From NCBI GenBank assembly GCA_021733925.1, contig JAIPJY010000050.1:1-52585 (forward strand): a stretch of DNA of 52,585 nt, in the 5' to 3' direction. Source of the DNA: Prosthecobacter sp. (GTDB lineage Bacteria; Verrucomicrobiota; Verrucomicrobiia; Verrucomicrobiales; Verrucomicrobiaceae). The position numbers and the translations under genes were made by a program. The notes beneath the pieces were generated by a model that saw nothing but the letters and a program-made list of their open reading frames with translations, made no database searches and had not been told where the DNA came from. Each line of letters begins with the position of its first letter. The stretch's first letter is position 1. This document shows positions 16,456 through 47,091 of the stretch, one piece after another.

Positions 16456-17790
16456 CTACGGCTTCACCAAGAAGAAGGCACGGAAGCCATCGAGGAGAGG
16501 CAGGTTCGTCACTTCGAGGCCGGTGGTTTCATCCACCCACTGGGACTGCGGGTTGAGGAGGTAGTTTTGATACACGGCGGTGGCAGGGTCGGTGTCGCCG
16601 CTCCAGAGGCGCAGGCGTGAGCCGAGGGTGAAGGGCTGTGTGCCGGGAGCCTGCGGGGTGGCGAGGCCGATGCCGAGCAGCGAGGTGCCTGCGCTCTGCG
16701 GCAGGGCGAGGGCGGCGCTGCGGACTTCACCCAGGAAGGTGAGCGTGGCCGGTGTGCTGCGGACCTGCACCAGCATGCCTGTCTGCGGCGAGATGATGCG
16801 TGCGGCGTCATTCGCGAGTGCGGCGTCTCCATCACGCACCCACTGCGCGGTGCCGTTGGTGGTGGTCTGCAGCCAGTTGATCTGGAACTGGCCGCTGGCG
16901 CTGTCGAAGAACATGATGCGGTCTGCCGTCTCCGCCGCTGTCGCTGGTTGCAGGCCGGTCACCGGCAGCAGGCCGCCAAGAGTCCAGTGTGGACGGATGC
17001 AGATGCGTGCTCCGGCCAGGGCGCTGTCTGCGCTGGTGGTGAGCGAGATGCTGCTGGTGGTGGAGGCGGTGGTGGTGTCGAGATCCATGGTGCGTCCGGT
17101 CAGTGCGCCGCTGAGCACTTCCGCATAGTAGCTCACGCCATTCTGCAACTGCGTGCGGATGTCTCCGCCAATGGTGTTGAGCACCACGGTGCGGCCACTG
17201 ACGGAGGCGACCTGACCCGTATAAACGGCAGGCAGCAGCAGCGGCATGGACAGCGACTGACGGCCCACAGCGAACTGCATGCGTGCCCAGCCCTGAGCTC
17301 CGGTGGTGGCGGTGGCTTCCGGGGTGCCGTCGAGGTTGGCATCCAGCGTGACTTTGATGCGCAGGTAGCCGCGTGAGGCACCGCTGAAGAGGGACTCCAC
17401 ACGGCTGTAGCGCAGCGTTTCCGTCTGATCCGCGTTGACCGTGGTGACCGGTGTGAGGGCCAGCGTGGTCCAGGTGGTGAGATCATTGCTGCCTTCCAGG
17501 TAGAAGCGCAGATCTGCATGCGAGCCGGAAGGCCGTGTGAGCACTGCGTCGATGGCACCCGTGACGGTGTTGTTCACCAGCGTGAAGCGCGACACTCCGA
17601 GGCCGCTGCCACCGGCTGTGCCGAGAGCGTATTCCAGCAGGTTCGTCTGGCCATCGGCATCCGGATCATCATTTGGACTGTTGAGTCCGCTCAGGCTGTT
17701 CTGCGACTGCCATGCGGTGAAGGTGGACGGAGCGGAGTAGGTGCCGGGATTGGTCACGAGGTTGCGTTTGACCTCCACGGCATTTGGCGA
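16456..17790 (-). other. giant protein C-terminal region (TSP3-like motif plus TIGR02597-like domain)
   Basis: This encodes residues about 9,754-10,197. The motif DPDADGQTNLLEYALGTA resembles the calcium-binding thrombospondin type 3-like tail common in exported Verrucomicrobia proteins. A domain follows with RPHWTLGGLLP and repeated FTLGSRLRLW/LRIKVTL strands, which matches my memory of the Verrucomicrobia family TIGR02597. It is a candidate for a sorting or surface-retention domain, but no anchoring motif is visible. Confidence 0.6.
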
Positions 17791-20700: not shown

Positions 20701-23700
20701 GTTGTAGTTTGCGTCGAGGAACACCAGATTGCCGACTGCGACGGAGCGGAAGAAGCCGAAGTCGATGGTGAGGTCGGTGTTGCCATCGTTCACACTGTCC
20801 ATGTAGGCATTGCTGCCGAACTCACCGAGAGAGTCGGTGGGCTCGTCATTTGGTGACAGGTGGAATGGATAGGACACGACGCCGGTGGCGGACGGATCTG
20901 GCACATCGATGCCGTTTTCATCCAGGTTGTCATCCACGCCGTTGTCACTGCCGTCGCCGGGCAGCGAGCGCCAGCCGGAGAGTGGTTTGCCAGCGGCGAA
21001 TTCCGAAGCTGGGATGAAGATCTTGTAGTCGCCCTCGACCAGATTGCTGAAGATGTAGGTGCCGCCGTTGTTCGAGACCACGGTGGAGATTGGGTTGGCG
21101 GCCTGCACGTCGGCGGCAGCGTCAAAGAGCTGCACCTTGACGCCGTCGATGCCTTCACCCGCGTCATAGACACTGTTGCCGTTGAGATCGACGAAGACCA
21201 GGTTGCCCACGCCGACGCCGTTCGGGTTGTTAAGCTCAAAGCCGAAGTCGATGGTGAGGTTGAAGTTGTTGTCGTCGAACGAGTCGATGGTGTTGAACGC
21301 ACCGCTCTCACCGGTGTCATCCTTCGGCTCCGCATCCACCGCCAGGGTGAAGACCGCGCTGCTGATGCCGTTGAGGAATGGTGACGCGTCATCGATGCCG
21401 TTTTCACTGCCGGGCACTTCATCATCGATCGCCACGGAGGCGCTGCTGACGCCCGAGAGGGAGGTCAGACCATTGAGCGGATGCCCGGGCTCGAACTGCG
21501 AATACGGAATATGCACGACGTAGTCGCCGGCAGGCAGCGAATTGAAGAAGTACTGGCCGCCATTGCTGGTGATGGTGCTGAAGAGAGGCACCCCAAAGCC
21601 GGGGGTCTGGCTGCTGCGGTAGAGCTCCACGGTCACACCGTCCACGCCTTCACCGACGTCAGCCTTGCCGTTTTGATTGGCGTCGACGAAGACCAGATTG
21701 CCCACGCCGACCGGAGTCTGGAAGCCGAAGTCGATGGTGAGGTCGATCGCGGCATCGTTCTGGTCATCGGAGGTGTATTCAAAGCCGGTCTCACCGCTGT
21801 CATTCGTCGGCGCATTGCCGGGATAGAGACTGATCACCAGCGAGGAGACGCCGTTGTCCGTTGGCAGGCCATCATTGATGCCGTCTTCACCCACGTCGTC
21901 ATCGCCCACGAGACCTTCGAGAATGCTGATGCGCTGGTAGAGCGGGCCACCGGACTGGAACTGAGAGGACGGGATGTGCACGATGTAGTTGCCGGGACGC
22001 AGGAAGCTGAAGCCGTAGCGGCCCGTGGCATCTGACGTGGTGATGGAAAGCGGATTGTCCACCTCAGGGAACTGCGTGTCGGTGTATAGCTCGACGCTCA
22101 CTCCTGGCAGGCCTTCTCCCGCGTCGTAGTGGCCGTTCGAGTTGTTGTCCCCGAAAATCATGTTGCCAAGCGCCACCGGACGGAAGAGGCCGATGTCTTC
22201 CGTGAGATTGATGTTGATGTCATTGAGGTCGGTGGAGGAGTCAAAGCCGGTTTCGCCGCTCGCATCCGTTGGCGCCTGATCACGCACGAGATTGATGACG
22301 CCGGTGCTCACCCCTGTGATCCACGGCGTGTCCGTCGGCAGGGCGTCCTGGCCGGTGTTGTCATCACCTGCCGTGACGACGGGCAGGCTGTAGAGACCGC
22401 GCAGATTGCCGCTCACTTCGAACTGGTAGGCGGGCAGATGAATGAAGTACTGACCCTGCCACAGATTGCTGAAGAGGTAGAGACCGCCATTGGCGGTGAT
22501 CGCCGTGGCCACAGGCGTCGCGACTCCTGGAGTGTCGCCCCAGCGATAGAGTTCGATGGTCACGTCATCACGGCCTTCACCCACGTCGAAGCGGTTGTTG
22601 CCGTTGTCATCGACGAACACGAGATTGCCGATGCCCATGATGCCGGGCTCCACAAAGCCGAAGTCGATCGTCATGTCACCGTTGGCGTCCACGGTGTAGT
22701 CGTCGAGTTCGCCGCCGGGGCCGAATTCCGCGCCGGAGGAGCCGTTGCCCACAGGCTCGGCGCCGGGAGTCAGAGTGATCAGCGGGCTCTTCACCACGGT
22801 CTTCGGACCGCCGGGCTGAATACCGCTGTCATCACCGTCGATCTGGTCATCCACAATGGACGAAATGGGGCTGCTGTAGCCGCTGCCAGCCAGTGGCAGA
22901 CCGTCCACAAAGTTGGACTCTGGAATCTGCACCTGATACACGCCCGGAGCCTGGCCGGAGAAGTAGTAGAAGCCTTTGTTGTCCGTGTAGGTCCAGCCGA
23001 CGAGGAACTCGGCACCATCAGCGGAATTGCCGTTGAGATCCTGCCACAGGTCCACGCGCACGCCGGGGATGCCGAGCTCTGCCGCATCCTGGATGCCGTT
23101 GGCATTGTCATCATTCCAGACCAGAGAGCCGATGGCGACGGTGTCTGGCAGCGGCGCAAACGGACGACCGATGGCGAGGTCACGCGGGCCGGACCAGACT
23201 TCAAAGTTCGGACCCGGAGGCCGTGGGATCGGCACTTCATAAACATTGACCGTGCCATTGGGCGCACCGGTGATGTCCACACTGACCAGCGCGCCAGTGT
23301 TGTAGCTGCCGGCGTTGACGGGCTTGCCCCAGCTATAACCGGAGATGTAGAGCTTGTTGTTCGAAGGGTTGAACTCGAGGTCGCGTGTGTCCACCTCACC
23401 TTTGCCGGCGCTGGAGAGGGTGGCGATGAGCTGCGGCAGGCCCGGTGCGGCAGGCGTGCTGATATCGAGGCTGAAGACTTCTCCGTCGGTTCGGTTGATG
23501 CCGTAGAGCGTGCTGCCTTCGATGTCGATGCCCGAGATCAGCGCGATGGAATTCCCGCCGGGCACCATGGCCACGAGCTGGGTGTCGGTGACGATGGTGT
23601 TGAGGAACGCGCCGGTCGTCGTGCTGTAGCGGCGCACTTCGCGGATGTCGTTGGTCTGGATCACGAGGTAGAGATTGCCATCCGGACCGAAGTTCATGTC

Positions 23701-26700
23701 TTCCACACCTGCCTGAGTGATGAAGGTGTAGGGTGCTGAAGCGCCGATTGGCTTGCCCGGAATGGCTCCCGTGGGTCCCTGGAAGCGGACGACGCGGCCG
23801 CCATTCACATCAAAGACATAGAAGTTGCCGTCAGGGCCGATGGCGAACTGCGTCACCAGACTCATGCTCGTGACACTGTTGTCGAGCACCGGGCCGAGGT
23901 CGGTGCCGGTGGGGCTGATCTTGCGCAGGTTGCTGGCGCCGTAGTGGGCCACGTACCAGTTGCCGTCCTGACCGAGCTCCATGCCATAAGGCACGTCACC
24001 ATAGTCCGCATTGCCCTGGCTGAGGCTGTTGCCAAAGGCAGGCACCAGAGAGCCGGAATAGAGGCCTGTGCTGGAGTCGAAGGACTGGATGCTGTCCGCC
24101 TGCGTGGCAGAAACATAGATGTTTGGCGTCATGTTGACGAAACCAAAGTCGATGGTGGTTTCTTCGTAGGTGCCGCCGCCGGTGCCCGGCTCATCTGCAG
24201 CGGTGAGGGTGATCACGGGGCTGTTGACCGCGCCACCGCTGAGCTGGAGGCCGTTGTCATCGTTGTCGACGCCGTTGTCCACAAAGGCGGTGGTGCTGCT
24301 GGAGAGCGGCTGCGCTGCGGGCGCACGCGGGATGCGCAGATAGACTTTCAGCGGTGGCACCGAAGTGAAGAGATAGGCCCCGCCACCGCTCGTGGTGGTG
24401 GTTTTCAGCAGCACGTCATCCGTGCCGCCGATGCTGTTGTCTGCGCCTGCATTCCACAGTTCCACGGTGACGCCGTCGATGCCGGGCTCACCGTTGTCAC
24501 GGACGCCGTTGTCGTTGGTGTCCTGCCAGACGAGGTTGCCCACGTTCATGCCGCGGAAGAGGCCGAAGTCGATGGTGTTGTCCGTGTCCGCGTCGCTGTC
24601 ATCCACGGTCGGTTCGGCTCCGGTGGTGAGGGTGACGACCGGGGAGAAGACCGGAGTGCCGGGACCGCCGGGCTGGGAGGCGGCGTTGTTGTCATTGTCC
24701 ACGCCGTTGTCGAGATTCACCGGACTGCCGCCGATGATGTTCAACTCGGTAGGCATCAGCACACGCATGAAGTAGTAGCCGGGCTGCAGATTGATGAAAG
24801 TGTACTCACCCTGCCCGTTGGTGGTGGTGCTGGTATAAAGCAGATCGCTGTTCGGGCCGCTGCCGCCGATGGCGTGGTCCGCGCCGGGGTCCCAGAGTTC
24901 CACGGTGATGCCGCTGAGGCCGGGCTCGCCCACATCACGCAGACCATTGAAGTTGCTGTCTTCAAAGACGGTGTCACCGAGGCTGAGACCCTTCACCAGA
25001 AGCGAGTAGGACTGTGTGGCGGAGCAGTTGTAGGCATCTGTGCTGCGGACGGTGAAATTGGCCGTGCCATAGACCAGGGCCGAGCCTGAAATCAAGCCGC
25101 CGGAGGAGACTGTCATGCCCGCTGGAGGAGAGCCCGCGATCACCGCATACGTGTAGGGTCCGGTGCCGCCGCTGGAGCTGAGCTGCTGGCTGTAGGGGAT
25201 GTTGTAGTAGGCGCTGTTCAGCGTCGTGGGGGTGAGGCTCACGGACGGGCAGTTGACGGCCAGCGTGTAGACCTTTGAGGCGGAGCAGTTGTAGGAATCC
25301 ACCGTCTGCACGGTGAAGGAGGCCGTCGTCGCCTGAGTGGGCGTGCCGGAGATGAGGCCGCTGGCACTCATCGAAAGCCCGGCAGGCAGCGTGCCACTGG
25401 CGATGCTCCAGGTGTAGGGAGCACTGCCGCCCGAGACCGTCAGGGAGGCCGTGTATGAAGTGCCCACGACGCCGTTTGTCAGCGTCGCTGGAGAGATGGT
25501 CATCGTCGGGCAGACGATGGTGATGGTGTAGGGCTGCGTGCCCGGCGCACCGTTCACATCCAGCGCCTGAACCGTGAAGGAGTAATCGCCGGGAGCTGCT
25601 GTGGTGGTGCCGGAGATGGCGCCTGCGGTGGAGATCGACAGGCCGGTGGGGAGGGCGCCGGTCAGCTTGCTGAAGGTGTAAGGCGCGGTGCCGCCGGTGG
25701 CGGTGAGCTGCGTGAAGTAAGGCACCAGACGCGTGGCGTTCCCCAGAGTGGTCGGCGTGATGTAGATCGGCGGGTAGTCCACCGTGAAGGTGTAGGACTT
25801 CGTGGAGAAGCAACTGTCCGCGTCCGTGGCCTTCACCGTGAAGGTGAAGCTGCCGAGGGCGGTGGGAGTGCCGCTGAGCACGCCGCCGCTGCTCAGTGTC
25901 ATGCCAGTAGGCAGCACGCCCGAGGAAAGGCTCCAGGTGTAGGGGGAGGAACCGCCGGCCGCTGTCAGCGTCTGGGTGTAGGCGGCATACTGCACACCGG
26001 CAGGCAGCGCCGCCGGAGTGATGGTGAGCGTCGGACAGGCGATGACGATCGACAGCGCCTTGGTGACGGAGCAGCTCACGGCGTCCGTGGCGCGCACCGT
26101 GAAATTGTAGGTGCCAGGCGCGGAGGTCGGAGTGCCGGAGATCAGACCGGCGGTGCTCATCGACATACCCGCAGGCAGCGCACCGGAAGCGATGGTCCAG
26201 TTGTAAGGTGAGGTGCCGCCGGACGCGCTGAGCTGCTGGCTCGGATACGCCACGTTCTTCGTCGCGCTCGGGAAGGACGGCGCGGTGATGGTGAAGGAAG
26301 GGCAGTTCACCGTGATGGAGTATACGCCGGATTTGGCGCAGCCGTTGGTATCCGTGGCGGTGATGGTGATGTTGTAGCTGCCCGGTGCGCTGGAAGGCGT
26401 GCCGCTCAGAATTCCGCCGCTGCTCAGGGTCATGCCGGTGGGCATCGTGCCAGTGAAGCTCCAGGTGTAGGGGCTGGTGCCGTTGCTGGCGGTCAGCGTC
26501 TGCGCGGAGTAGGCCGCATACTGCGTTGCCGCAGGCACGGTCGTCGGAGTGAGCGAGAGCGCCGGACAGGTGACCGTCCAGGTGAAGGCGGTGTCGAGAG
26601 AGCAGCCATTGGCATCCGTGGAGCGAATGACAAAGGAGTAGCTGCCCGGCGCACCTGTGATGGTGCCGGAAAGCAGGCCGCTGCTGGAGAGTGTCGCGCC

Positions 26701-29700
26701 AGTGGGGAGAGTGCCCGAAGCACGGGTGTAGGTGTAGGCCGAGGTGCCGCCCGTGGTGGTGAACTGCTGGCTGAAGGCGGTGTTTTGCGCCACCGAGGAC
26801 AGGGAGGTCGGAGAGAGCACCAGCGTCGGACAGACCACGCCAATCGTCATCGCCTGCGTGGCGGAGCAAATGGAGGCGTCCACCGCTTTCACCGTGAAGC
26901 TGTAGGTTCCGGTCGCTGCAGTCGGCGCACCACTGAGCACACCTGCGCTCGAAAGCGTCAGCCCGGCAGGCAGTGCGCCGCCGGAGATGCTCCACACATA
27001 GGGCGAGGTGCCGGAGGCGGCAGTGAACGTGGCGGAGTAGGCCGAGCCCTTGAACGCATTGGTCAGAGTTGCGGGCGTGATGGTGATCACCGGGCAGGAG
27101 CGCAGGCCGAAGTCGATGGTGTTTTCCGAGTTGGTCAGGCCGGTGCTGCCAGGCTCACCGCCAGGAGTCAGTGCGAACACCATGCTGTTGATCACCGATC
27201 CTGCGCCACCCGGCTGCGAGCCGTTGCTGTCATTGTTCACGCCGTTGTCAGCGGTGACGACGGTGCTGCTGGCCAGCGAGTAGGCTGCGGGCGGTGTCAG
27301 GCGCACATAGTAGTTGCCGCCGGTGTAAACTTTGAAGCTGTAGGAGCCGCCGCTCAGTGTGGAGGTGGTCTGCAGCACGCTGTCCGCATTCAAGCCGGTG
27401 CCGCCGACGGCATTGTCTGCGCCGGGGCTCATGAGATCCACCTGCACGCCGCCCACCCCGGTTTCCGTCGTGTCCTTGAGGCCGTTGTTGTTGAGGTCAT
27501 TCCACACGAGGTCACCCACGGTGATGCCGGTGAAGAGGCCGATGTCGATGGTGTTGTTGCCATTGGTGCCGTCGCCATCCACTCCAGTGGCGGGTTCCGT
27601 GCCCACCTGAAGATCGACCACCGGACTGTAGACAAACGTACCCGGACCGCCTGGCTGGCTGCCGTTGTTGTCATTGTCCACGTCGTTGTCCAGCGCCACC
27701 ACCACGCCGCTGACACCCGGCACGCTCACCGTCGGTGTGACACGCACGTAGTATTTGCCCGGCACGAGATTGGCAAAGGAATACAGACCCGTGCTGCTGC
27801 TCAGCACGCTCGCTCCCACCTGCGTATCAGCGTCCGCGCCGCTGCCGCCGATGGCATTGTCCGCACCCGGGCTGAAGAGCTGCACCGTGGCGCCATTGAT
27901 GCCGAGCTCGCCGCTGTCGCGCAGCCCGTTGCTGTTGGCGTCATTCCACACCAGGTTGCCGATGCTCACCCACGGCGAGACGGAGCAGGGCTCGGTGGCG
28001 ATGGTGAACACACCCGCTGGATCGGTCACAAAAGAGCCTTCCGTGGCATAGCTGAACGCGGTCAGTGCACCGTTGCTGTCATACGTCGGCGTGCTGCTGA
28101 GATCCACCATGTGCAGCACCATGCCGGTGCTGCCACCGGTCTGGATGCCTTCCCACGTCGAGGAATCAACCCCCATCGCGCTCCAGTTCGTCGCATTGTT
28201 CACGCGGCTCACATCGATCACGCATTGGAAGCGCACATTGCTGCCGGTTTCGGTGACCTTGTTCAGCAGGACGTCTCCCACCGTGCTGCTGCCGGCCACC
28301 GTGCTCACCATCAGGTTCGCCGCCGTCTGCCAGCTCTGGTAGTCCAGCACAGGATCATAGCGGTAGATCGTCACCGTCGGGCTGGCGCGCGTGATGCCGT
28401 CCACATACACGATGGCGTGGTCCGCAGTCGCCGGATTCGCCCCCGTGCTGACCAGGAACCACAACGCGTCCACCTTGGAGGCGCCGATCTGGTTGAACGT
28501 CAGGTCCACATTCAAACGGCTCAACGCCGCATCATAGATCACGTCCGCGTTGCCCATCGTGGCCACTCCGCCCTGAGTGTAGTTGAAATCATAGGCCTGT
28601 GCGGGTGTCCATTCCGTGGCCCCGCTCAGCACGCCGTCGGCGTTCGTGTCCATCGCCAGGAAGTGATAGCAGCCCGTGGCGCTCGGACCGCTGGACTTGA
28701 AGCCGAAATCAATGGTCATGTTGCCATTGTTGTCATCGGAGTCGTCGATGGTGTTGAACGCGCCGCTTTCACCACTGCTGTTGATCGGTTCGCCGCTGTC
28801 GCTCAGGGAGATCAGCGAGCTGCTGATGCCGTTGGTGGCGGGCAGCGCGTTGTCGATGCCGTCGTCATTGCCCACGATGTTGTCATCGATATCGTTGTCC
28901 GAAGAGCTGGCGGGGAAGATGGAGATCGTGTTCACCAGAGCCTTGCCGGTGGCAAATTCGGAGGCCGGCACGCGCACATAGTAGGAGCCTGGCACCACGT
29001 TGGTGAACTGATACCGCCCGCGCACGCTGGAACTGGTGCTCGTGGTCGTGCTCGTCACAAATGAACCGGAGCTGTTGAGCAGTTCCACGCGCACGCCGCC
29101 GACGCCTTCACCGGAATCATAGACGCCGTTGTTGTTGGCATCCTTGTACACCAGATTGCCGATGCGGCAGAAGGTGGGGCGCAGGCCGAAGTCGATGGTG
29201 TTGTCGATGTTGCTGCCGAATGGAGCGAGCAGATTGCCCGGCTCTGTCAGCGCGGAAAGCGTGATCATCGGCGAATAGATCGGCGCGCCGGTGGAGGACT
29301 GTGAGATGCCGTTGCTGTCGTTGTCGATGCCGTTGTCCGCATTGCTGCTGGTCGTGCTGCGCCGTGGGTGCGTGATCGGCGGTGTGAGCTTGATGAAATA
29401 CTTGCCTGCGGTGAGTCCGCTGAAGCTGTAAAGGCCGTCGCTGCCGGTGGTGAAGGTCGTGCCCACTTTCACATCATCACCATTGTTCACCGTGGAGTCG
29501 GTGGAGCTGTACAGTTCCATCTGAGCACCTTCGACACCGGTCTCACCCACATCAACCAAGCCGTTGTTGTTGGTGTCGGCAAAGACCAGGTTGCCCATCG
29601 TCATCGCGGCGCTGAAACCGAAATCCACCGTCATGTCCTGATTGCCGCCGCCGCTGGCGAGGTTGCCGGGCTCTTTTCCGAGCGCCAGATTGATCACCGG

Positions 29701-35700: not shown

Positions 35701-38700
35701 TTCAAAGCTCGGGTTGTCGATGAGATTGGTGATCTGACATGGGTTGGCATTGGCAAAACCGATGTCGATGGTGCTGTCGAAGTCGGTGTCGTCTCCATCA
35801 ACGCCAGCGCCGGCCTCCGTGTTCGGATAGAGGGTGATCAGCGGCGTGACCACGGCGAGTCCGGACACCGCTTGAATGCCGTTGTTGTCATTGTTGACGC
35901 CGTTGTCCAGGTTCACCTGGCTGGTGCTGACCTTCGGATAATACGTCGGCGGTGTGGGGATGCGCACGTAGTAGGTGGCAGGAGCAAGGCCGTTGAAGAG
36001 ATACGCACCATCGGAGTCGGTGGTGGTGGAGGCCAGCAGCACGTCATCGCCGCTGCCGTTGTTCACCACGCCATTGATGCCCGGCGACCAGAGCTGGATG
36101 GGCAGATTGGGCACGCCGCTTTCACTGGCACCGCGCAGGCCGTTGTCGTCCATGTCCACCCACACCTGATTGCCGATGCCCATGCCTTTGATGTTGTAGG
36201 TCACCGCAGTCGCGGTGCTCTGGCAGCTGTAGGCGTCCGTGGCGCGAACGGTGACGGTGTAGGTGCCGAGCGTCGTCGGCGTGCCGCTCACGCTGCCATT
36301 GCTGGCGAGGCTGAGTCCGGGCGGCAGACTACCACTGACCAGCACAAACGAATAGGGCGCGGTGCCGCCGCTGCCGGTGATGTTTTCGGCGAAGCTGGTT
36401 TGGAGATAGCCGTTGGACGGTGCGGTGCCGCCCACCGTGATCACCGGACAGACCGGCGTGGTGGTGTAAGTGCGTGAACCCGCGCAGCCGTTCGCGTCGG
36501 TGGCGGTGAGGGTGAATGTGACCGGCGTGTTCTCGGTGGCCGTGCCGCTGAGAACACCCGTGCTGCTGTTGATGCTCAGCCATGCGGGCAGGCCCGTGGC
36601 ACTCCATGTCAGCGGCGTCGCGCTGGTGCCGCTGGTGGTGATCGTCTGCGAGTAGCTGAGGCCAAGGAACGGCGCAGGCAGCGTGGTCGGGCTGAGTGTG
36701 ATCACCGGGCAGACCTTCACCTGATAGGTGGCGCTGCCCAGACATCCCGTTGAATCCGTGATGCCCACCGTGATGCTGGAGCTGCTGCCGTCTCCCGTCG
36801 CGGCGGTACCGCTGAGGACGCCGTCGCTGGAAAGTGTGATTCCGGCAGGGAGCGTGCCGCTGCTCAGCGTGTAAGTGTAGGGCCCGGTGCCGCCGCTGCT
36901 CGCCAGAGCCTGCGAATACGCGGTGCCCGCCGTGGCGCTCGGCAGCGTGCCCGGGGTCACGGTGAAGATGGTGCAGCGTGGGTCCAGGGTGTAAATCTGC
37001 GTGGTCGAACAACCGTTGGCATCGGTGGCTTGGAGCGTGAAGTTGCCCGGGCTGTTGTCCGTCGGTGTGCCAGTGAGCTTGCCGGTAGCGGCATTCAGTG
37101 TGCACCAGGCAGGCAGGTCACCGCTGACAACGCTGTATTGATAGGGAGCCGTGCCGCCCGTGGCAGCAACCGTCTGCGAATACTCCTGCCCCACCGTCGC
37201 CGGAGGCAAGGTGGCAGGCGACAGGGTCATGGCGGGGCAGACTTGCAGCGCCGGCCAGACCTGAGAGCCGACGCAGCCATTGGCATCGGTGGCGGTGATG
37301 GTGAAACTGACCCCGACGCCGTTCGCCGCAGTGGGCGTGCCGCTGATGACAGCAGTGGTCGCATTCAGCGAGAGTCCCGCAGGCAGGACGCCACCGGAGA
37401 CTCCCCAGACATAATCCAGCCAGCCCGTCACCGGCTGCAGAGCCAGGTTTGGGCCGGACCACTGCAACTTCATCACCGCCTGACCCGCGGCTTCATAATA
37501 TTCCACGCGGATGGGCACCACGACGCCTGCGGTCAGATTCACCGTGGCGGTGTAGTTGGTGGCGGACTGATCCTGCCATTTGTCAATGACCAGCGTGTTG
37601 TTCACCCAGACGCGGACGCCGTCATCGCTCGTACTTTGGAAGGTGTAGGTGCCCGTGGTCGCCGGACGGACAAATCCGCTCCAGCGAACTGAAAAGCGGT
37701 CCACTGGAACCAGCGCATCCGGCGTGCCATCAGCCCAGTCATAATTGATGGAAGCCTCCTGGCGTGTCAGCACCAGCGTTCTGAAGTCCGACCCCGAGAA
37801 ATACTGGCCGGTCAGACCGGAAGTCGGAGAGGCGCTGAGCGCCTGGCTGTAAGGCACACCCACCGTGGCAACCGCGGGGGAAGCCGGAGTGATAGTGACG
37901 GCGGGGCACACAGGTGGCAGCGTGTAGGTCCGTGAGGCGGAGCAAAGATTGGCATCCGTGGCGGTGACGGTGAAGGTGACGGCGGTGGAGTTTGTCGGCG
38001 TCCCTGACAGCACGCCGGTGCTTTCATTCAGATACAACCATGCAGGCAGGCCCGTGGTGCTGTACACCACCGGCATGGCGGTCGTGCCGGAAGACGTGAT
38101 CGTCTGGGCGTATGGCGAACCAATCACCGGCGGTGGCAGTGTGGTGGGGTTCACGGTGATCACCGGGCAGATCTTGATCTTCAGCGTCTGATCTCGGAAG
38201 CAGGTGTTCGCATCGATGGCGCGCACGGTGACGGTGGTGCCGTTCACTCCACTTGTGGAAGCCGTCGGCGTACCGCTGATGCTGCCCGTGCTGCTGATGC
38301 TCAAACCTTCCGGCCACGTGCCAGAGGACGTGCTCCAGGTGTAAGGTGTCGCGCTGCTGCCGCTGGCGCTCATGGTTTGTTCATACGCAGTGCCCACGAG
38401 GCCGCTGGTCAGCGTTGTGGGCGTCATCGCGATGACCGGGCAGGAGCGGAAACCAAAGTCGATGGTGTTTTCAAAGCTCGAGCTTCCTGTGGAGCCCGGC
38501 TCCGTTCCGGCAGCCAGCGTGATCACCGGACTGATCGTTGCCGTGCCAGCGCCGCCGTTCTGCGCGCCGTTGCTGTCATTGTCCACGCCATTGTCCTCAT
38601 AGACCGTGAGCGTGGCGGATGTATAGATCGCAGGCGGCGTGGGAATGTTGACCCGATAGGTTCCAGGTGCCTGACCGCCGAAGAAGTAAGCGCCGCTGGC

Positions 38701-41700
38701 GTCGGTCGTCGTGGTCAGCAGCACGTTGTTCGTGGTGCCATCCAGCAGCTGCACCGTGATGTTTTCCTGACCGGATTCGGTGTTGGAGTCATAGAGGCCG
38801 TCGCCATTGAGATCGGCAAACACGAGGTCACCCACGCTCACTCCGTCACCCAGGGCGAAGTCGACGGTGAAGTCGGTGTTGGTGTTGGAGTCGCCATCGT
38901 TCACGGACTCCGTGCCGGGGATCAGCGTGAGCATCGGGCTGTAGATCGGCGTGCCGGGTCCGCCGGGCTGCATGCCGTTGTTGTCATTGTCCACGCCGTT
39001 GTCCAGGGCCACCACCACGCCGGAGGTCAGCGGCAGTGAGGCCGGTGGGATGACCTGCACGTAGTAGAGGCCCGAAGGGAGATCGCTGAAGATATAGACA
39101 CCGCTGCTGGTGATCGTGACCGGTGTGCCGATCTCGTAGTCCGCATTTTCGCCGGTGCCGCCGCGCACGCCGTCCGCGCCTGGATGGAAGAGATGCGCCA
39201 CCGCGCCCACAGCACCCGGCTCGCCGTAGTCTTTGATGCCGTTGCGATTCGTGTCCTGCCACACCGAATTGCCCAGGCAAAGCCGTGTGTCCGCCACATC
39301 CACCTTTTGGAACACCATCGAGTCTTCCAGGCCGTAGGGATTGTCACCGTAGACGCCCATCGTCGTGCCGTCTGCGGAAATGCCGTCACCACCATTGTAA
39401 AGATTCCAGAAGGAGTAGGCGTTGTCCTGCGCCACGTGGCCGTCAGAGACGAGCAGGTCTGAAATGCGTGTGTACAAATCCGCCGGCGTGTCCCACATCA
39501 CCGCAAAGCTGCCGGTGGAGGCGCTGCTGTACAAGGTGCCGAGCACGCGGCCAGTGTCGCTCACCGCACCGACGATGCCGCCCAGACTGTCCTGTGGCAG
39601 GATGCGTGGCAGATTGGTCCGAGTGCTGGACTCCGTGTCATACACAAACGGTGTCGGCACGCCGGAAAGGCGCTGGCTGGAACCAATGTAGCGTCCGCTC
39701 GGGCTGATGCGGCCTGCGTTCAACGAACCGCCCGTGAAAGTGACCACCACGGTGCTGTAGCCTGCTGCAGGGCTGCCGCTGAGAACTTTGCCCACGCCGC
39801 TGCTGTCCGTCACCAGCAGCATGGTGCCATCAGCGGAGGCATCGATCACTTCACGCACTCCGGAGATCTGGGTCCATGCGCGCGTGTTGAGATTCCAGTA
39901 ACCACCTTGCGCCAGGACGGGGCGGCCGGGACCGTCAGGGTCCACGGTGCCGAAGGCATAGGCGCTGTCACTGGTCAGCGCGGATGGGATGGCGCTCATG
40001 CTGAGGTTTGAATCATACGGCGTCAGCAGCCGCACCGTGGTGCCGCTGGCCTGGCTGTAGAACCATGGGACGATGCTCAGCTTGCTGCCCGTGGTCCATT
40101 TTTCATAGCCCACCGTATCGCCGCTGTCGTTGACATCACGGCCCATGGCATACGGATGCTTGCTGTCCAGCAGCGGCACATTCACATTCACATTCGTGAG
40201 CGTGTTCATGACGAAGGCGTAGGAGTTCTTGGCCACGCGGATGCCGGTGATCCAGCGTCCGTTCGGCGACATGTTGTAAAGGCAGGTGCCCACGTTGTTG
40301 TTTTCACCGCCGAGCACGTCGCGTCCGAGACGTGTCACCAGGTAGGCGCCGCCGACGCTTTGATTGAGCGTGGTGGGGCAGTTGATGGCGGCGGCGGAAA
40401 TGATGATGCTGCGCGTGATCGTGGTCTGGCAGGAATTGGAGTCGGTGACGTTCACCGTGAGGGTGGAAGTGCCTGCGACAGTTGGCGTGCCGCTGATCGC
40501 ACCGGTGGAGGTGTCGAAGTTCAGGCCTGCGGGCATCGAACCGCCCGTGATCTCGTAGGTGTAAGGAGCGATGCCGCCTGCCGTGATGAAGGTCTGTGCA
40601 TAGCTGGAGCCCACCATGCCCACGGCCAGCGTGCCGGGGCTGACGCTGATGACGGGGCACTGTGGCGTGATCGTGTAGCTGAGCGAACCCACACAGCCGT
40701 TTGCGGACGTGGCGCTGATGACAAAGGTGCATGACACCGCGTTCGTGGGCGTACCGCTCAGCACGCCGGTGCTCGCATTGAAGGTCACTCCGGCTGGCAG
40801 CGTGCCGCTGACGAAGGCAAAGACATAGGGCGCAGTGCCGCCGCTCGCGGACAGTGTCTGTGACGAACTCACCCCGACGGTCCATGTCGTGGTGAGGGGA
40901 GACAGGGAGATGACGGGGCAGATTTTGAGGCTGATGACCTGATCCTTCAGACAGCCGTTGGCAGCCATGCTGCGCACCGTGAAGCTGCTGCCGGCGCCAT
41001 TGGCAGTCGTGGGCGTACCACTGATGACGCCGCTGCTGCTGAGCAGAAGTCCTGCGGGCAGCGTGCCGTTGCTGATCGAGTAAGTGTAGGGCGAGGTGCC
41101 GCCGCTGGAGGCGAGGGCCTGGCTGTAAAAGCTGCCGACCGTGGCCAACGCCGCCGAGGTGGGCGTCACGCTGATGGCCGGGCAGACCTGCAGAGTCAAC
41201 GTCTTGAAAGCCTGGCAGCCATTGGCATCCGTGGCGCGGAAGGTGAGGCTGGTGCCGCTGGCATTCACCGCCGTGGGTGTGCCGGAAATAACGCCGGTGC
41301 TGCTGCCAAGAGTGAGGCCCGTCGGCAGCGTGCCGCTGGTCAGTGCCCAGGTGTAAGCGGCACTGCCACCACTGGCGGTCAGCGCCTGCGAGTAGGCCGA
41401 ACCCACGACGCCCTGCGCCAATGAAGAAGGCAGGATGCTGATGGTCGGGCAGACGGGTGCGAGGGTGCATGCCTGTGTTTTGGCGCAGCCATTGGCGTCC
41501 GTGGCACGCACGGTGAAGGCTGCGGTGGTCGTGTTGTTTGGCGTACCGCTGATCACCCCTGCGGAGCTCAGCGTGGCCCATGCGGGCAGCGAACCACTGG
41601 CCAGCGTGAAGGTGTAAGGTGAGGCGCCGCCGCTCGCAGAAACAGTCTGCGAATATGCCACACCCACCGTTGGCGTGGTCAGTGTCGCAGGCGCGAGTGT

Positions 41701-44700
41701 GATCACCGGGCAGACTTGCAGCGCCAGAGTTTGTGATCCCTGGCAGCCATTGGCATCATTGACCCGCACGATGATGGAGGTTGCCGGGCTGGCCGTTGCC
41801 GTCGGCGTGCCGCTGATGACTCCGGTGCTCGAATTGAGCGAGAGACCTGTGGGCAGTGAGCCGCTGATGATCGTCCATGAACTGAAGGGTGCGGTGCCAC
41901 CACTGGCGGCCAGGGACTGCGAGTAAGCCGTACCCACCGTGCCTTGTCCAAGTGTGGTGGGGCTGATGGTGATCGTCGCGCATGACGGCGTGAGCGTGTA
42001 TGCGCGTGTGCCGGTGCAGCCGTTCGCATCCGTGACACCCAGCGTGAAAGTGGCTGAGGTGGTGGTGGTCGGCGTGCCGCTGAGCACCCCTGCACTGCTC
42101 AGTGTGGCCCAGGTGGGCAGCGTGCCGCTGACCAACGTGTAAGTGTAAGGAGCAGCACCGCCGGAAGTCGTGATCGTCTGAGAATACGCCGTGCCCACCG
42201 TCGCAACGCTCAAAGTGGTGGGAGAAAGCGTGACGACCGGGCAGATCTGCAGCGAGTAGGTCTTCGTGGCGGCGCACGAGTTGGCGCTGTCCGTGGCGGA
42301 GATGGTCACGTTGACTCCACCCGCATTGCCAGTGGTGGGTGTGCCGCTGAGAACTCCCGCGCTGCTCAGTGTCAAGCCCGCTGGCAGCGTGCCGCTGGTG
42401 ACCGACCAGGTGTAGCTCGATGAGCCACCGGAGGCGGAGAGCGTTTGTGAATACGCACTGCCCACGGTGCCCAGCGGCAGTGTGTCATTGGCGATGGTGA
42501 TGACCGGGCAGCCCATGGCAAAGGTCATGGCGCGAGAGCCCTGACAGCCATTCGCATCCGTGGCGCGGATGGTGACGGTGCCGCTGGTCTGGCTGGTGGG
42601 CGTACCACTCACCACACCGGTGGAAGCATTGAGTGAGAGCCCTGCTGGCAGCGAGCCGCTGACCACTGCAAATGTATAAGCCGCAGAACCACCCGAGGGC
42701 GTGATGGTCTGCGAGTAAGCGACACCCACCGTACCCGAGGCCGGAGTGGTGGGAGCGAGAGTGATGGCCGGGCAGATTTGCAGCGTCACCGCCCGTGTGC
42801 CCTGGCAGCCATTGGCATCATTCACGCGGAAGGTGATCGTGGTCGCCGGACTGGCGGACGCCGTCGGCGTACCGCTGACGACCCCCGTGCTGGCATTGAG
42901 TGTGAGGCCTGCCGGCAGCGTACCACCTGTGATGGTCCAGGTGCCGTAGGGAGCGATGCCGCCGCTGGCAGAGAGCGTCTGCGAGTAAGCCGTACCCACA
43001 GTGCCTGCGGCCAGTGCCGAAGGTGTGACGGTGATCGTCGGACACTGTGGCGTGAGTGTGTAGGCGAGCGTGGCCGAGCAGCCATTGGCATCCGTGTAGC
43101 GCAGCGTGAAAATGGAAGTCGCGGTGCTGGTGGGCGTTCCGCTGAGCACCCCTGCTGCAGTCAGCGAAGCCCAGGCAGGCAGCGTGCCGCTGGCCAGGGT
43201 GCAGGTGTAAGGCCCGGTGCCGCCGCTGGCGGTGATGGTTTTCGAATACGAGGTGCCAACCGTCGCCCCGGTCAGCGTGGTGGGTGAGAAGGTGATGACC
43301 GGACAGATCTGCAACGTGATGGCGCGCGTGCCCTCGCAGCCATTGGCGTCATTCACCTGCACCGTGACCGAAGTGGATGGACTTGCAGAAGCCGTCGGCG
43401 TGCCGCTGATGACACCGGTGCTCGCATTGAGTGTCAGGCCCGCTGGCAGCGTTCCTGCGGTGACGGCCCACCCGCTGTAAGGTGCGATGCCGCCCGTGGC
43501 GGAAAGTGTCTGCGAGTAGGAGCTGCCGACGGTGCCGGTGGCCAGCGTTGCAGGCGTGATGGTGACGGTCGGGCAGACCGGTGTCACGGTGTAGGAAAGT
43601 GTATTGGAGCAACCATTGGCATCCGTGACAAGAACGGTGAAGGTGGACGCCGTGTCGCTGTTCGGTGTACCGCTGAGAACGCCTGCGGAACTCAGCGTGG
43701 CCCATGAAGGCAGCGAGCCGCTGGCCAATGTGTAAGTGTAGGCTGCAGCACCGCCGGATGCCGTGAGCGTTTGTGAATACGCCGTGCCCACGGTGGGTGT
43801 CGGCAGGATCGAAGGCGTCACTGCGATGATCGGGCAGATTTGCAGCGTCACCACCTGCGAGCCCTGGCAGCCGTACGCATCATTCACACGAACGGTCACG
43901 GAAGTCGAAGGGCTGGCGGAGGTCGTCGGCGTGCCGCTGATGATGCCGGTGCTCGAATTCAGAGTGAGACCTGAAGGCAACGTGCCGCTGGTCACGGTCC
44001 ATGAGGTGTAAGCTGCTGTACCGCCGCTCGCATTCAGGGTCTGCGAGTAGGCGGTGCCCACCGTTCCCGCAGTCAGCGTGCTCGGCGAAATGCTGATCGT
44101 CGGACAGGCAGGAGTGACGGTGTAGGACTGTGTTTTGGTGCAACCGGCGGCATCCGTGGCGCGCACGCTGAAGGTCGCTGCGGCGGAGCTGGTGGGAAGA
44201 CCGCTGATCGTGCCGCTGCTTGCGCTCAGAGTCAGCCCGGCCGGCAGCGAACCGCTCGTGATCGCCCATGTGTATGGAGAGACACCACCTGCTGCGCTGA
44301 GCGTTTGTGAGAAACTGATGCCGACGGCCGGCGTGTTGAGCGAGGCAGGAGTGACCGTCACCGCCGGGCAGGTCGGAGTCATGCTGATGGCCAGCGTGCC
44401 GGTGCAGCCTTTCGCATCCGTCGCACGCAGCGTGAAGCTGGTAGCGCTGGAACTGGTGACGGTTCCCGAGATGACACCCGAGCTGGAATTCAGCGTGAGA
44501 CCGGCAGGCAGCGCCCCGGTGGCGACCGCGTAGGTGTAGGGTCCGTTGCCGCCGCTTGCAGTCACCGTCTTTGAGTAGGCGGTGCCGACTGTAGGAGCGG
44601 CCAACGTGGTCGGAGTCAGCGTGATGGTGCTGCAAGTCACATTGAAGAGGTAGTCTTCCACTTCACCCGGGCCGCTGGCACCGGAGGGGCCGGGATTGGT

Positions 44701-47049
44701 CACGGCGGTGAGCCGGAAGCGTGCACCCAGACTGCCTACGGCTGCATTCGCGGGAACATTGAAGGTGTAGTTCTGACTGACATTGTTCGTGCCACTGGGA
44801 ATGACCACGTTGTTGATGATCTGGTCGCCGCTGTCCGTCAGGGATCCGTTGTTGGCGAAGTCGATCCAGCCGTTCAGGAAGGCAGGCGCACCGGAGGTGT
44901 TCGTCACCTTCACCGTCACACTCACGCCCGTGGCTCCCTGCACCACGCTGGCTGGCAGTGTGACGCCGTCTTCGTCATCCGTCCATGCCAGGTCGTCCGA
45001 ATTTGCCGCCGTGTTGAACGCAGCCGGAATATCGTAATCAACGAGCGAACCCATCAGCAGCGAGCTGAACACCGTGTCACGTGCCACCCCGAATCCGGAA
45101 TAGTCGCCAAAGTCATCCAGCACCTGCGTGAACTCATAGCGCATGGCACCGCCGGAGACGGCGTTGGACGCCATGCTGGACGTGATGGTGGTGGCCACGG
45201 CGGTGGTTTTATTCAGCGTGTAGAGTGCGTTGCCGGCCTGTGCATACAGCGTGCCGTAACCGTCCGTGGACAGGCCGAAGACATCGGAGATGTTCGATCC
45301 GCTCGTGTTTTTGACCTGGCCCACAAGTTGGGCGGAGGTGCCACCTTCAGGCACTTTGTACAAATAGAAGGAGGTGAAACCGCTGCCCGCTGTGGTGTAG
45401 TACAATTCATTGCCAATCCACGCCATGTCCCCGGCACTGTTGAGCGCCTGACCATTTGGAACCGTGGCCGGCGCGGTGAAGGCGATGCTCGTTGACGTGT
45501 TGGAACTGGTGCTCAGCGAGGAGAGATTGAAGGTGTAGATGTCACCATTGCTGACACTGCTGATGTAGGGCGTACCGGCGGAGTCAAACACCATGCCGTT
45601 GAAGCTGTTGCTGCTGCCGAAACTCCCCAGCTTGGTCACCGCCCCTGTGCTGGGGTTGATCTGGTAGATGTTGTTGAAGTCGATGCCGTAGAGGATGCCG
45701 GAGGGTGACCACGCCAGATCCGTCAGGTAGTGGGAGCTCGAGTCACGCGTCTGGCCGACGAGCGTCTTGGCTCCGGTGGAGACATCATACGTTTCCAGAT
45801 AGCCGGTGCTGCCGTTGCCGGTGCTGACATACAGCAGGCTGGAGTAGCTGGTGCCGGAAGCCACCGTCATCAGATACGACTGCGTGGCGCTGCAGCCGTA
45901 GGAGTCGGTGACCTGCACGGTGAAACTGGAGGTACCCTTCGCCGTGGTCGTGCCGCTCAGCACGCCCGCGCTGCTCAGTGAGAGCCCCGCTGGCAGCGTG
46001 CCGGAGGAACGCGACCAAGTGAGGGGTGTGTTCACGGAGCCCGACGTCGCCGTGGCCACCAGGGTGACATTGACCGTCGTGGACAGATCCCACGAACCCA
46101 TGGCGAACGGTGAAATGACATAGCTGGTGCAGGTCGGCGTCATTGTGTACGTGCGCGTGCCGACACAGCCGCTTTGATCCACCGCCTTTATAGTGAAGGT
46201 CTCGGTGTCCCCGGAGGTGGGCGTGCCGGTCAATGCACCGCCCGAGCTCAGGCTCAGTCCGCCTGGCAGCGTGCCGCTGCTCACACTGAAGCTGTAGGGC
46301 GCGGAGCCGCCGCCGGCGCTGATCGTCTGCGAGTAGGCGGTGCCAACCGTCGCAGTGCCCAGAGTGGTGGGCCCCACCGTGATGGCCGGGCAGATTTGCA
46401 CCAGATAATCTTCCACCTCACCATTGCCTTTCAAGCTGGTGGAGCCTGGACTGCTCGTTGAGGTCAGGCGCACACGCACGCCCACATCGCCGAGGGTGGC
46501 GCCGGACGGCACCGTGAAGGTGAGGGTCCTGTTGGAATTCGACGTGCCGGTGGAGATCGTCGTGTTCGAGGCGATCTGTTCGCCGCTGTCCGTGAGCGAG
46601 CCATTCTTGTTGTAGTCGATCCACGCATTGAGGAAGACGGTGGCCCCGCTGGTGTTCGTCACGTTCACGACCATGCTGCCGGTGGTGCCTGCGACCAGAC
46701 TGCTGGGCAGTGTCACGCCGTCTTCGTCATCGGTGCCATTGAGGTCGTCTCCCGTAGCGAGGGCATTGGAATTAATGTACGATTCGCTGTCCGTCGTCGC
46801 ACCGATCCTGATGGAGCTCACCGTCGTGCTGCTGGCGCTGCTGAAGCCGTTGTAGTCACTGAAATCCGTCGCGGCCAGTGCCGCCACCGCCGATGCCACA
46901 AACAGGCTGATACCTGCCGTCAATGTGCGCTGTCCTCGGGCGCAACGCCTCCTCACCCACGCGGCAGCGCGGTGTATCGAGGCAGTCGTTTCGACTGTTT
47001 CTTCTTTAGAAACATTCGAAGGAGCGCTGTATCCGGGAGGAAGACCCAT
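16456..47049 (-). CDS. giant secreted multi-domain surface protein, 10,197 aa
   Basis: One uninterrupted frame encodes an exported protein of roughly 1 MDa. Residues 1-60 form an extended signal peptide (basic RRRCARGQR, then a hydrophobic core ending AALAA). Domains in order: GEVED; two He_PIG Ig-like modules; propeller-like region; GEVED; 16 He_PIG; HAF-like region; 2 SdrD_B; 7 He_PIG, one split by PA14; SdrD_B; beta-sandwich; 2 SdrD_B; 9 He_PIG, one split by LamG; SdrD_B; beta-sandwich; 3 SdrD_B; a 240-residue unassigned region; 2 SdrD_B; 8 He_PIG; 2 SdrD_B; NHL-like propeller; 11 SdrD_B; a C-terminus with a calcium-type [16 protein letters not shown] motif and a TIGR02597-like domain ending AFFLVKP. 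There is no LPXTG, PEP-CTERM or autotransporter barrel. Roles in adhesion, prey or particle binding, or matrix formation are inferred from the modules. Confidence 0.93.
   Translation of the reverse strand: [10197 protein letters not shown]
17790..23140 (-). repeat. eleven tandem SdrD_B-like modules
   Basis: Eleven consecutive modules of about 155-165 residues each begin with (V/I)GN(L/M)VF.D.N.NG..D.G and carry GxYFVHIP strands. They end with Asp-rich loops of the type GDDNxGEDGxDDxxP and xTIDFGF. This is the Cna-B-like fold of staphylococcal SdrD B repeats, which bind calcium and rigidify. The Asp/Asn-rich loops make the same behaviour likely here. The run forms a stalk between the NHL-like propeller and the C-terminal domain. 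Confidence 0.75.
23150..24130 (-). other. NHL-like beta-propeller region of the giant protein
   Basis: Residues about 7,641-7,967 contain blade-like repeats ([50 protein letters not shown]) of the D-G-N-hydrophobic-Y-V type found in NHL/SMP-30 propellers. It probably folds as a ligand-binding propeller inserted between Cna-B-like stalk modules. Confidence 0.6.
24995..27095 (-). repeat. He_PIG Ig-like block E, eight modules
   Basis: Eight modules of about 85 residues have the pattern CP.(I/L)T(I/L)(T/S)P..L, SGG.SPYTWS, GLS(L/M)S..G(V/L)(I/L)SGTP and DxxxCS. Several use the variant ATQYAAY where block B has ATVGTAY, which ties this block to block D. Confidence 0.75.
30035..30665 (-). other. 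beta-sandwich segment of the giant protein
   Basis: Residues about 5,462-5,672 ([14 protein letters not shown].., [41 protein letters not shown]) look like a galactose-binding-like jelly roll. Such folds usually bind carbohydrate. No family can be fixed by eye. A second segment of similar character at 34,975-35,755 begins NLIDNPSFE, as carbohydrate-binding modules of the CBM4/9 type often do. Confidence 0.45.
31105..34130 (-). repeat. He_PIG Ig-like block D, nine modules with nested LamG
   Basis: Nine modules with the [7 protein letters not shown]-type consensus. The second is interrupted after [10 protein letters not shown] by a LamG/concanavalin-like domain and resumes at [18 protein letters not shown]. 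Confidence 0.75.
33085..33740 (-). other. LamG-like domain nested in an Ig module
   Basis: Residues about 4,437-4,655: [71 protein letters not shown]. These are the standard strands of LamG/Pentraxin-like (concanavalin-like) domains, which bind glycans or proteins. Confidence 0.85.
34975..35755 (-). other. beta-sandwich segment (CBM4/9-like start)
   Basis: Residues about 3,766-4,025 begin [13 protein letters not shown] and include [13 protein letters not shown] and [13 protein letters not shown], as in carbohydrate-binding modules or choice-of-anchor domains. A paired CC occurs in SQCCGYNGG. The assignment is tentative. Confidence 0.5.
37430..37830 (-). other. PA14 domain nested in an Ig module
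   Basis: Residues about 3,074-3,207: [63 protein letters not shown]. These are diagnostic PA14 strands; the DDG is typical of calcium-dependent glycan-binding PA14 domains. The flanking Ig module continues on both sides (ALSASPTS before, [17 protein letters not shown] after). Confidence 0.88.
39290..40385 (-). other. HAF-repeat-like region of the giant protein
   Basis: Residues about 2,222-2,587 contain repeats such as [49 protein letters not shown] and [14 protein letters not shown]. They are typical of extracellular HAF-type or WD40-like propeller repeats (x-ISxDGxxVxG). It probably folds as a propeller between block B and the first SdrD_B modules. Confidence 0.55.
40385..44640 (-). repeat. 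He_PIG Ig-like block B, sixteen modules
   Basis: Sixteen tandem putative Ig modules of about 85-90 residues have the consensus CP.IT(I/L)(S/T)P.TL...TVGTAYSQT(L/I).ASGG..PY, SG(T/S)LP.GL(T/S)L, SG(V)(I/L)SGTP and TDANGC. Two sub-types alternate over much of the block, which gives a two-module higher-order repeat. Confidence 0.85.
44640..46800 (-). other. N-terminal GEVED domains flanking a propeller-like region
   Basis: GEVED-type domains ([44 protein letters not shown] at about 46,385-46,800; a second copy at 44,640-45,110 ending [14 protein letters not shown]) enclose two Ig modules and a propeller-like region (45,110-45,850, [20 protein letters not shown]). The GEVED name comes from its conserved C-terminal motif, visible in both copies. 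Confidence 0.8.
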
Positions 47050-47085
47050 GTATTTTTTGTGAATAATTCCATCGTAACCATACGC

Positions 47086-47091
47086 ATTATA
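47086..47091 (-). promoter_or_regulatory. candidate -10 box of the giant gene
   Basis: TATAAT on the minus strand, 37 bp before the ATG, in a markedly AT-rich patch (47,050-47,130). No convincing -35 hexamer lies at the right spacing. The leader has no Shine-Dalgarno sequence (GGAATTATTCAC then A/T-rich), so translation may rely on an unstructured leader. Confidence 0.45.

What the first reader, a model, noticed from the sequence alone, without database searches (positions are those of the whole stretch)
16456..47049. Uninterrupted 10,197-codon reading frame for a modular secreted protein
One frame covers 58 percent of the window without a stop or frameshift and includes a signal peptide and a C-terminal Verrucomicrobia-type domain. 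I count about 42 Ig-like (He_PIG), 24 SdrD_B-like, two GEVED, one PA14, one LamG and several propeller or beta-sandwich regions. This is one of the largest bacterial proteins one can expect. Keeping a repetitive frame of this size intact implies selection. The organism and the ligand are unknown.
Basis: partly seen in the sequence, partly recalled or inferred. Interest (0 to 1): 0.75.

Follow-up and report, generated by a model that had tools for sequence, protein, structure and literature searches.

The report
Giant modular surface protein of Prosthecobacter
A bacterium related to Prosthecobacter carries an intact gene for a million-dalton, bead-chain protein whose relatives keep the same long stem but swap the other end, which looks like an enormous surface tether rather than a sequencing error.

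Summary
The frame is real: 16456-47049, minus strand, 10,197 aa, about 1.04 MDa. It is no assembly accident: 20 giant frames were read from 19 genomes, dN/dS is 0.138-0.178 in five pairs, and argG is the divergent neighbour in 10 of 10 same-clade genes whose 5' flank is held. The gene has two zones. From aa 3624 on, modules keep one order and, in 11 same-clade genes, nearly one length (6,563-6,604 aa); outside that clade length varies. The N-terminal part comes in three types. A 12-base promoter element precedes 19 of 19 same-genus starts fetched. A TIGR02597-like domain (below cut-off) ends the protein and recurs at the end of other large proteins. Best reading: a Sec-exported, C-terminally held tether with an exchangeable outer tip. 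Size is no record: a same-family frame has 12,545 aa; print cites 85,800. Ligand, export route, orientation and expression are untested.

The parts
16456..47049 (-). giant gene, 10,197 aa
   Evidence: purifying selection
47071..47099 (-). promoter-like element: ATTGAAATTATA, 11 nt, TAnnAT (sigma-70-like TTGAAA-16-TACGAT); its first base is 50 nt before the start codon
46870..47049 (-). leader: long N-region plus hydrophobic segment, read as Sec signal peptide (about aa 1-60)
   Evidence: inferred, no signal-peptide predictor was run
36181..47049 (-). variable N-terminal part, aa 1-3623: GEVED x2, He_PIG runs, a 365-aa module without known family, two SdrD_B, PA14
46390..46875 (-). first GEVED region (N-terminal type I)
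40390..44634 (-). run of 16 He_PIG Ig-like domains (aa 806-2220); G001, G047 and G022 carry insertions of 177, 354 or 355 aa inside it
39280..40374 (-). module aa 2226-2590 (labelled HAF in my scripts, propeller-like by eye only), the N-terminal module in type III relatives
   Evidence: no Pfam match at E<=1
37447..37821 (-). PA14 domain (aa 3077-3201)
16459..36180 (-). constant C-terminal core, aa 3624-10197
34960..35751 (-). module M265, no family over cut-off (CBM_4_9 at E 0.078 only)
33208..33714 (-). LamG (concanavalin A-like) module
30028..30672 (-). module M216, no known family
27964..28695 (-). module M248, no known family
23134..24135 (-). module M335, beta-propeller by profile match to solved propellers (best E 1.3e-6); single copy in 31 of 33 carriers
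   Evidence: Pfam below cut-off
16459..17808 (-). C-terminal region: NLLEYALG motif, beta-rich domains, TIGR02597-like end
15676..16338 (-). downstream gene on the same strand: L,D-transpeptidase (Pfam YkuD), lipoprotein by its N-terminus (by eye)
47238..48470 (+). argG, divergent neighbour, marks the locus

Best explanation
A giant modular surface tether, adhesin-like. Steps shown: the frame is intact and under purifying selection; it begins with a hydrophobic leader; the C-terminal two thirds are a chain of Ig-like, SdrD_B-like and five single modules in one order, ending in a domain that recurs at the very C-terminus of other large proteins of the order; the N-terminal third is exchangeable; the promoter region is conserved and nearly private to this gene. 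Steps inferred: the chain leaves by Sec, crosses the outer membrane by an unidentified route that reads the C-terminal domain, stays held there, and projects as a rod of roughly 0.3 micrometre (recalled domain sizes), stiffened by calcium in SdrD_B loops and by cysteine pairs in the Ig-like domains. The variable N-terminal tip (GEVED, PA14, Kelch or DUF11 modules by species) meets the ligand, probably carbohydrate or another surface; the LamG and propeller modules of the core add binding sites along the stem.
For: Selection and frame; 61-68% of substitutions at codon position 3 in three pairs. Fixed core and variable N-part. The C-terminal match ends within 16 aa of the stop in 29 of the 32 loci examined (the strongest hits, three further loci not examined). 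PA14, LamG, Kelch and propeller modules. Calcium-type loops: 16 matches to a DxNxNGxxD-like pattern; 86 of 99 cysteines in or within 6 residues of He_PIG domains; pI 4.05. Promoter element.
Against: No localisation, adhesion or expression data. No export system identified: the SprA search was uninformative because its control rang nowhere. The C-terminal model (mean pLDDT 71.8) has no PDB match at E<=0.001, so its role rests on position only. Hydrophobic windows also occur at aa 1066, 6727 and 6998-7001. Neither G057 frame shows a leader in its first 70 aa; one has a hydrophobic stretch just beyond, so its start is probably misplaced; the other is open. 20 of 48 same-genus genomes have no M335 match, though G036 and G014, among them, hold close C-termini on short contigs. 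Which end points outward is inferred.
Confidence: 0.6

Rival explanations
1. Structural envelope or matrix component (sheath, S-layer-like coat, prostheca or holdfast scaffold) with no specific ligand; the modules serve length and stiffness.
For: Core order fixed and core length nearly constant in 11 argG-clade genes; one M335 copy in 31 of 33 positive genomes; mostly Ig-like and SdrD_B repeats.
Against: The N-terminal third differs in module type between species, and PA14, LamG, Kelch and propeller modules are binding-type folds (recalled); 20 of 48 same-genus genomes show no M335 match, some of them fragmented; core length varies from 4,072 to 7,001 aa in the seven genes fetched from outside the argG clade.
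Confidence: 0.22
2. Weapon or digestive protein acting on other cells or polymers, as proposed in print for giant proteins of predatory PVC bacteria.
For: Print links giant PVC proteins to predation and carbohydrate degradation (PMC12057145, passages). Laminin_G_3 is described in Pfam as lectin/glucanase superfamily.
Against: No peptidase or toxin family, and no hydrolase family beyond that lectin-like one, at E<=0.001 in the whole frame or in the N-parts of the two relatives scanned, G004 and G026.
Confidence: 0.1
3. Assembly artefact or decaying repeat gene without function.
For: One relative (G032) has a TAG inside its C-terminal match and shorter frames, 2,166 and 5,606 aa at the two places hit.
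Against: 20 giant frames read from 19 genomes, one from a 6-contig assembly (G015, 11,510 aa); dN/dS 0.138-0.178; argG neighbour in 10 of 10 held flanks.
Confidence: 0.02

Closest known systems
Giant extracellular proteins Giant1-5 of Apilactobacillus kunkeei (PMC12863079, abstract and section list seen)
   Same: 3,000-8,000-aa elongated surface proteins, N-terminal binding-type domain, diversified by intragenic recombination
   Different: Gram-positive (recalled), cluster of five genes, beta-solenoid tip; here an Ig-like/SdrD_B chain, three N-terminal types, Verrucomicrobia-type C-terminus
SiiE of Salmonella and other type I-secreted giant adhesins (PMC6272769, search listing with start of abstract only; mechanism recalled)
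   Same: very long chain of Ig-like domains with a distal binding part
   Different: SiiE leaves by type I secretion (listing); absence of a Sec signal and RTX repeats as family marks are recalled; here a hydrophobic leader and no RTX motif in this protein
Staphylococcal SdrC/SdrD MSCRAMM adhesins
   Same: SdrD_B repeats; the NCBIfam SdrD model aligns in 9 stretches of the last third
   Different: 206.8 bits against a cut-off of 2,500; no LPxTG in the last 60 aa, one at aa 10028 without a membrane segment at the end of the protein
TIGR02597 proteins
   Same: about 185 aa of the C-terminal region align; the own genome has one stand-alone 382-aa open frame at 398 bits
   Different: the giant's match is below cut-off (34.9 of 50 bits); no paper in the library holds the name
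Giant genes of Omnitrophota and other PVC phyla (PMC12057145 and PMC11573180, passages seen)
   Same: PVC superphylum, predicted giant proteins, extracellular in one case described
   Different: here a Verrucomicrobiaceae family with conserved neighbour and module order; not mentioned in the passages seen

Membership tests
giant modular adhesins (works like) | very long repetitive chain with binding-type modules | tested here: met
giant modular adhesins (works like) | surface location and adhesion phenotype | not testable with these tools
   no bench or proteome data
MSCRAMM SdrD/SdrC | score over the family model's cut-off | tested here: not met
   206.8 of 2,500 and 110.1 of 1,700 bits for aa 6641-10197, the only third scanned
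MSCRAMM SdrD/SdrC | C-terminal LPXTG sorting signal followed by a membrane segment | tested here: not met
   no LPxTG in the last 60 aa, highest 19-residue hydropathy there 1.03
type I-secreted RTX adhesins | RTX nonapeptide motifs (mark recalled) | tested here: not met
   0 pattern matches in this protein, 1 in G047; no RTX family
type I-secreted RTX adhesins | absence of an N-terminal Sec signal (mark recalled) | tested here: inconclusive
   a hydrophobic leader is present but no predictor was run
type IX secretion cargo | host genome encodes SprA | tested here: inconclusive
   no match, but the control rang nowhere
type IX secretion cargo | known C-terminal sorting domain | tested here: not met
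   for the last 430 aa NCBIfam at E<=10 gives TIGR02597 only
TIGR02597 | score over the model cut-off | tested here: not met
   34.9 of 50 bits
TIGR02597 | restricted to Verrucomicrobia | tested here: inconclusive
   none of 14 control genomes rang; no wider search was made
polymorphic toxins | C-terminal toxin domain | tested here: not met
   no toxin family for the last third at E<=0.001 in Pfam, nor for the last 450 aa at E<=1 in Pfam or the last 430 at E<=10 in NCBIfam

The most novel reading that the evidence does not exclude
The locus is a dedicated tip-exchange platform: a private promoter and leader, a fixed C-terminal stem of about 6,570 aa, and an N-terminal slot into which whole module sets are swapped between species; export and holding depend on an undescribed Verrucomicrobiales pathway that reads the TIGR02597-like C-terminal domain, possibly with covalent attachment by the neighbouring L,D-transpeptidase.
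Probability: 0.25. Interest if true: 0.75.

Novelty: new variant of a known kind. Interest (0 to 1): 0.5.

Why it matters
Giant bacterial genes are easily doubted as assembly errors. Here the same 10,000-aa gene can be followed through a genus at one locus, with selection measured along its whole length and its parts sorted into a fixed stem and a changing outer end. If the C-terminal domain is an export or holding signal, it opens the question of how Verrucomicrobia move very large proteins across the outer membrane, for which no system was identified here (one search, uninformative).

Tried and rejected
Artefact: rejected. A strict molecular ruler: the core is 6,563-6,604 aa in 11 argG-clade genes, but seven further genes, fetched to test this, gave 4,072, 4,083, 5,265, 6,227, 6,401, 6,739 and 7,001 aa, and G041, G042 and G033 lack the M216-M248 block. 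The core boundary at aa 3624 was chosen after seeing the conserved block.

L,D-transpeptidase as a partner: it follows the giant in 11 of 29 3' flanks examined (8, 3), but homologues of 70-74% identity stand away from the giant in G015, G026 and G028, and the family is multi-copy (7 matches in the own genome; 114 of 115 genomes). Weak evidence. The plus-strand ORF 15562-16296 was first taken for a gene, then read as the antisense of it.

Promoter element as a regulon: the one off-target among 21 instances (G012) precedes a lipoprotein gene. Of 25 loci of that gene, L174-L180 and L183 carry TATTGTAATTATA, L181 TATTGCAATTATA, only G012's L182 the giant's letters, and the rest two or three mismatches or no match upstream (some of these loci are cut). 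I claim no regulon. Against full privacy: the exact 13-mer occurs a second time in the own genome, 162 nt before a 329-aa frame, though without the rest of the pattern.

Folds: the C-terminal model has no PDB match at E<=0.001; the M265 model was too poor (pLDDT 56.6) and not searched. Profiles of M265 and M248 gave one hit each at E 0.01 and 0.1, M216 none; I set these aside.

Tree test of exchange: core and argG trees disagree on G026 with local support 1.0 on both sides; one taxon, one small gene, so not counted as proof.

Literature: complete listings for TIGR02597 (0 papers), Prosthecobacter with 'giant protein' (1) and with 'adhesin' (3) were seen as listings only and none names such a protein in title or abstract start; some searches showed only the top 12 to 20 of longer lists. 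bioRxiv and most subscription papers are not held, so this is no proof of absence.

They confirmed YkuD and a di-haem peroxidase gene, placed the 177/354/355-aa insertions in the He_PIG run, and removed my unproved 'HAF propeller' claim.

Full report
The observation. One search lists one ORF at 16456..47049 on the minus strand, 10,197 aa; one search translates it with a single stop at its end. At 62.9% G+C the chance of a run this long without a stop is about 10^-133, and the other five frames of the stretch hold 54, 236, 320, 360 and 548 stops. Long plus-strand ORFs inside it (for example 1,112 aa at 17518-20856) are read as by-products of G+C-rich codons (inference). Computed mass of the whole translation 1,038,440 Da, pI 4.05. 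Tandem Repeats Finder at its default score reports no array inside the frame, so the repeats have diverged.

Whose gene. The window is a whole contig (C92) of a 7.3 Mb genome in 127 contigs, 93% complete. Contigs of same-genus genomes agree in length and place with named records: G030, G004 and G011 with Prosthecobacter sp., G027 with Verrucomicrobiaceae UBA7681, but G031 with a record titled Akkermansia muciniphila. I place the window in Prosthecobacter; the own genome's name was not seen.

Is the frame kept by selection. The last 430 aa were searched in 115 genomes, own included: 96 match at E<=0.001. I fetched 10 same-genus giants and one contig of another genus with two: frames of 8,537 (contig cut, G030) to 12,545 aa; seven more came later. 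Nei-Gojobori dN/dS against G027, G001, G030, G047 and G022 is 0.138, 0.155, 0.155, 0.178 and 0.164, at dS 0.30-1.07 (8,516 codons for G030, over 10,000 for the others). In 26 windows (400 aa, the last 197) it runs 0.071-0.329 for G027 and 0.071-0.382 for G001, highest at the N-terminus. Of the substitutions in three pairs 68%, 65% and 61% fall at codon position 3. Between aa 1423 and 1591, inside the He_PIG run, G001, G047 and G022 carry insertions of 177, 354 or 355 aa, about two or four Ig-like units, as expected of recombination between repeats (inference); other large indels are 967 aa in G001 and 136, 153, 53 and 78 aa in G022. Counter-sign: G032 has a TAG within its C-terminal match and shorter frames.

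The locus. argG lies divergently beside the gene in 10 of 10 argG-clade genes whose 5' flank is held (G000, G027, G001, G022, G047, G004, G008, G028, G026, G015; G030 is cut); in G004, G028 and G015 the gap is 2.3-2.4 kb, filled in G004 by a di-haem cytochrome c peroxidase gene. argG is not in the 12 other 5' flanks fetched, 5 kb each. The M335 module as a marker: 33 of 115 genomes at E<=1e-10, 28 of 48 in the genus, 5 of 20 in other genera of the family, 0 of 47 in other families of the order; 31 of the 33 have one copy. Some of the 20 same-genus genomes without it are fragmented; G036 and G014 hold close C-termini of the gene.

Two zones. From aa 3624 to the end the gene measures 6,563-6,604 aa in 11 argG-clade genes, own included, while the part before it is 3,622-5,296 aa in the 10 whose N-part is complete. 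For G004, G008, G026, G028 and G015 the 600-aa bins of the core keep 49-80% identity where the first four bins have 29-53%. The module order M265, SS, HH, LamG, eight H, S, M216, SSS, M248, SS, eight H, SS, M335, S run, C-terminal domain is kept in these 11 (one H fewer before LamG in G028). Of seven more genes it is kept in G039, G017, G024 and, with an unrecognised 168-aa stretch in the first Ig run, G005, while G041, G042 and G033 lack the M216-M248 block; G057's second giant has an unrecognised stretch in the place of M248 and an added block before the end. H and S are my own models of He_PIG and SdrD_B built from this protein. Outside the argG clade core length runs 4,072-7,001 aa in the seven genes.

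The N-terminal part comes in three types: GEVED first (G000, G027, G001, G047, G022, G026); a ~420-aa domain with no Pfam match at E<=1 first (G004, G008, G015, G028, G005, G024); or the module that here is internal at aa 2226-2590 (G041, G042, G033, G017, G039 and, by their first residues, G018, G037, G045). Pfam finds DUF11, Kelch, DUF7483 and PA14 in G004's N-part and 13 GEVED in G026's. The core tree puts G026 with G008 and G004, the argG tree with G015 and G028, each with local support 1.0 for the grouping; this fits exchange of part of the locus but rests on one taxon.

The promoter. The 12-mer ATTGAAATTATA stands before the start in 10 of 10 argG-linked genes and 9 of 9 same-genus genes with other 5' neighbours, 19 of the 28 same-genus carriers; allowing one mismatch there is none in the three other-genus flanks nor in the G057 stretch. 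The longer pattern, with TAnnAT 11 nt on, occurs once each in 18 of 115 genomes, all of the genus, and its reversed control in none. With G027, G047 and G028 added, whose second box deviates, 21 instances align: 20 precede a giant's N-terminus (G045's known by its first 494 residues only) and one, in G012, a lipoprotein gene. The exact 13-mer also occurs once more in the own genome. The scan tool calls TTGAAA-16-TACGAT a sigma-70-like site, 9 of 12 matches. Conservation of the spacer is more than a core promoter needs, so a bound regulator is likely (inference).

The C-terminus. The match ends within 16 aa of the stop in 29 of 32 loci, the window's own among them; the three others are L026 and L039, partial matches 82 and 51 aa short, and L040, read on the wrong strand by my script. 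L041-L043 were not examined. It resembles TIGR02597 below cut-off. AlphaFold gives a beta-rich model at pLDDT 71.8 without PDB relative at E<=0.001. Position and recurrence suggest an export or holding signal (inference).

How it may work. See the best explanation. The calcium and cysteine statements rest on motif counts, the rod length on recalled domain sizes. No toxin or peptidase family was found at E<=0.001. Giant surface proteins as such are known; I found no description of this family in the listings seen (complete; 22, 23, 52, 78 capped).

Noticed in passing
window 16346-16377, and by eye just after the L,D-transpeptidase gene near 15640: AT-rich near-repeats (AGTTTAAAGTTTCA type) between the giant and the transpeptidase gene, with a similar motif after that gene.
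   Followed up: no
G057 contig C63 (loci L073-L076): Two giant frames in tandem, 12,545 and 9,836 aa, 99 nt apart, in another genus of the family; by frame and match positions, G055 and G056 may be alike.
   Followed up: partly
L174-L183: A lipoprotein gene has its own conserved upstream element, mostly TATTGTAATTATA followed by ATATTGTCAAT or a near form, close to the giant's element.
   Followed up: partly
window 10655-14890: Large hybrid histidine kinase with CHASE3, several PAS, GAF and a receiver domain; only weak matches (25-28% identity) in the relatives' flanks held.
   Followed up: no
window 3782-8458: 1,558-aa Q/A-rich protein with N-terminal hydrophobic stretches by eye, no Pfam or NCBIfam match at E<=0.001, found near the giant in five relatives, in G047 only in part.
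   Followed up: no
G004, G015, G028 between argG and the giant (L058:8213-10210 in G004): An extra gene; in G004 a di-haem cytochrome c peroxidase family protein. The gap is present beside the second N-terminal type but not in G008, which shares that type.
   Followed up: partly
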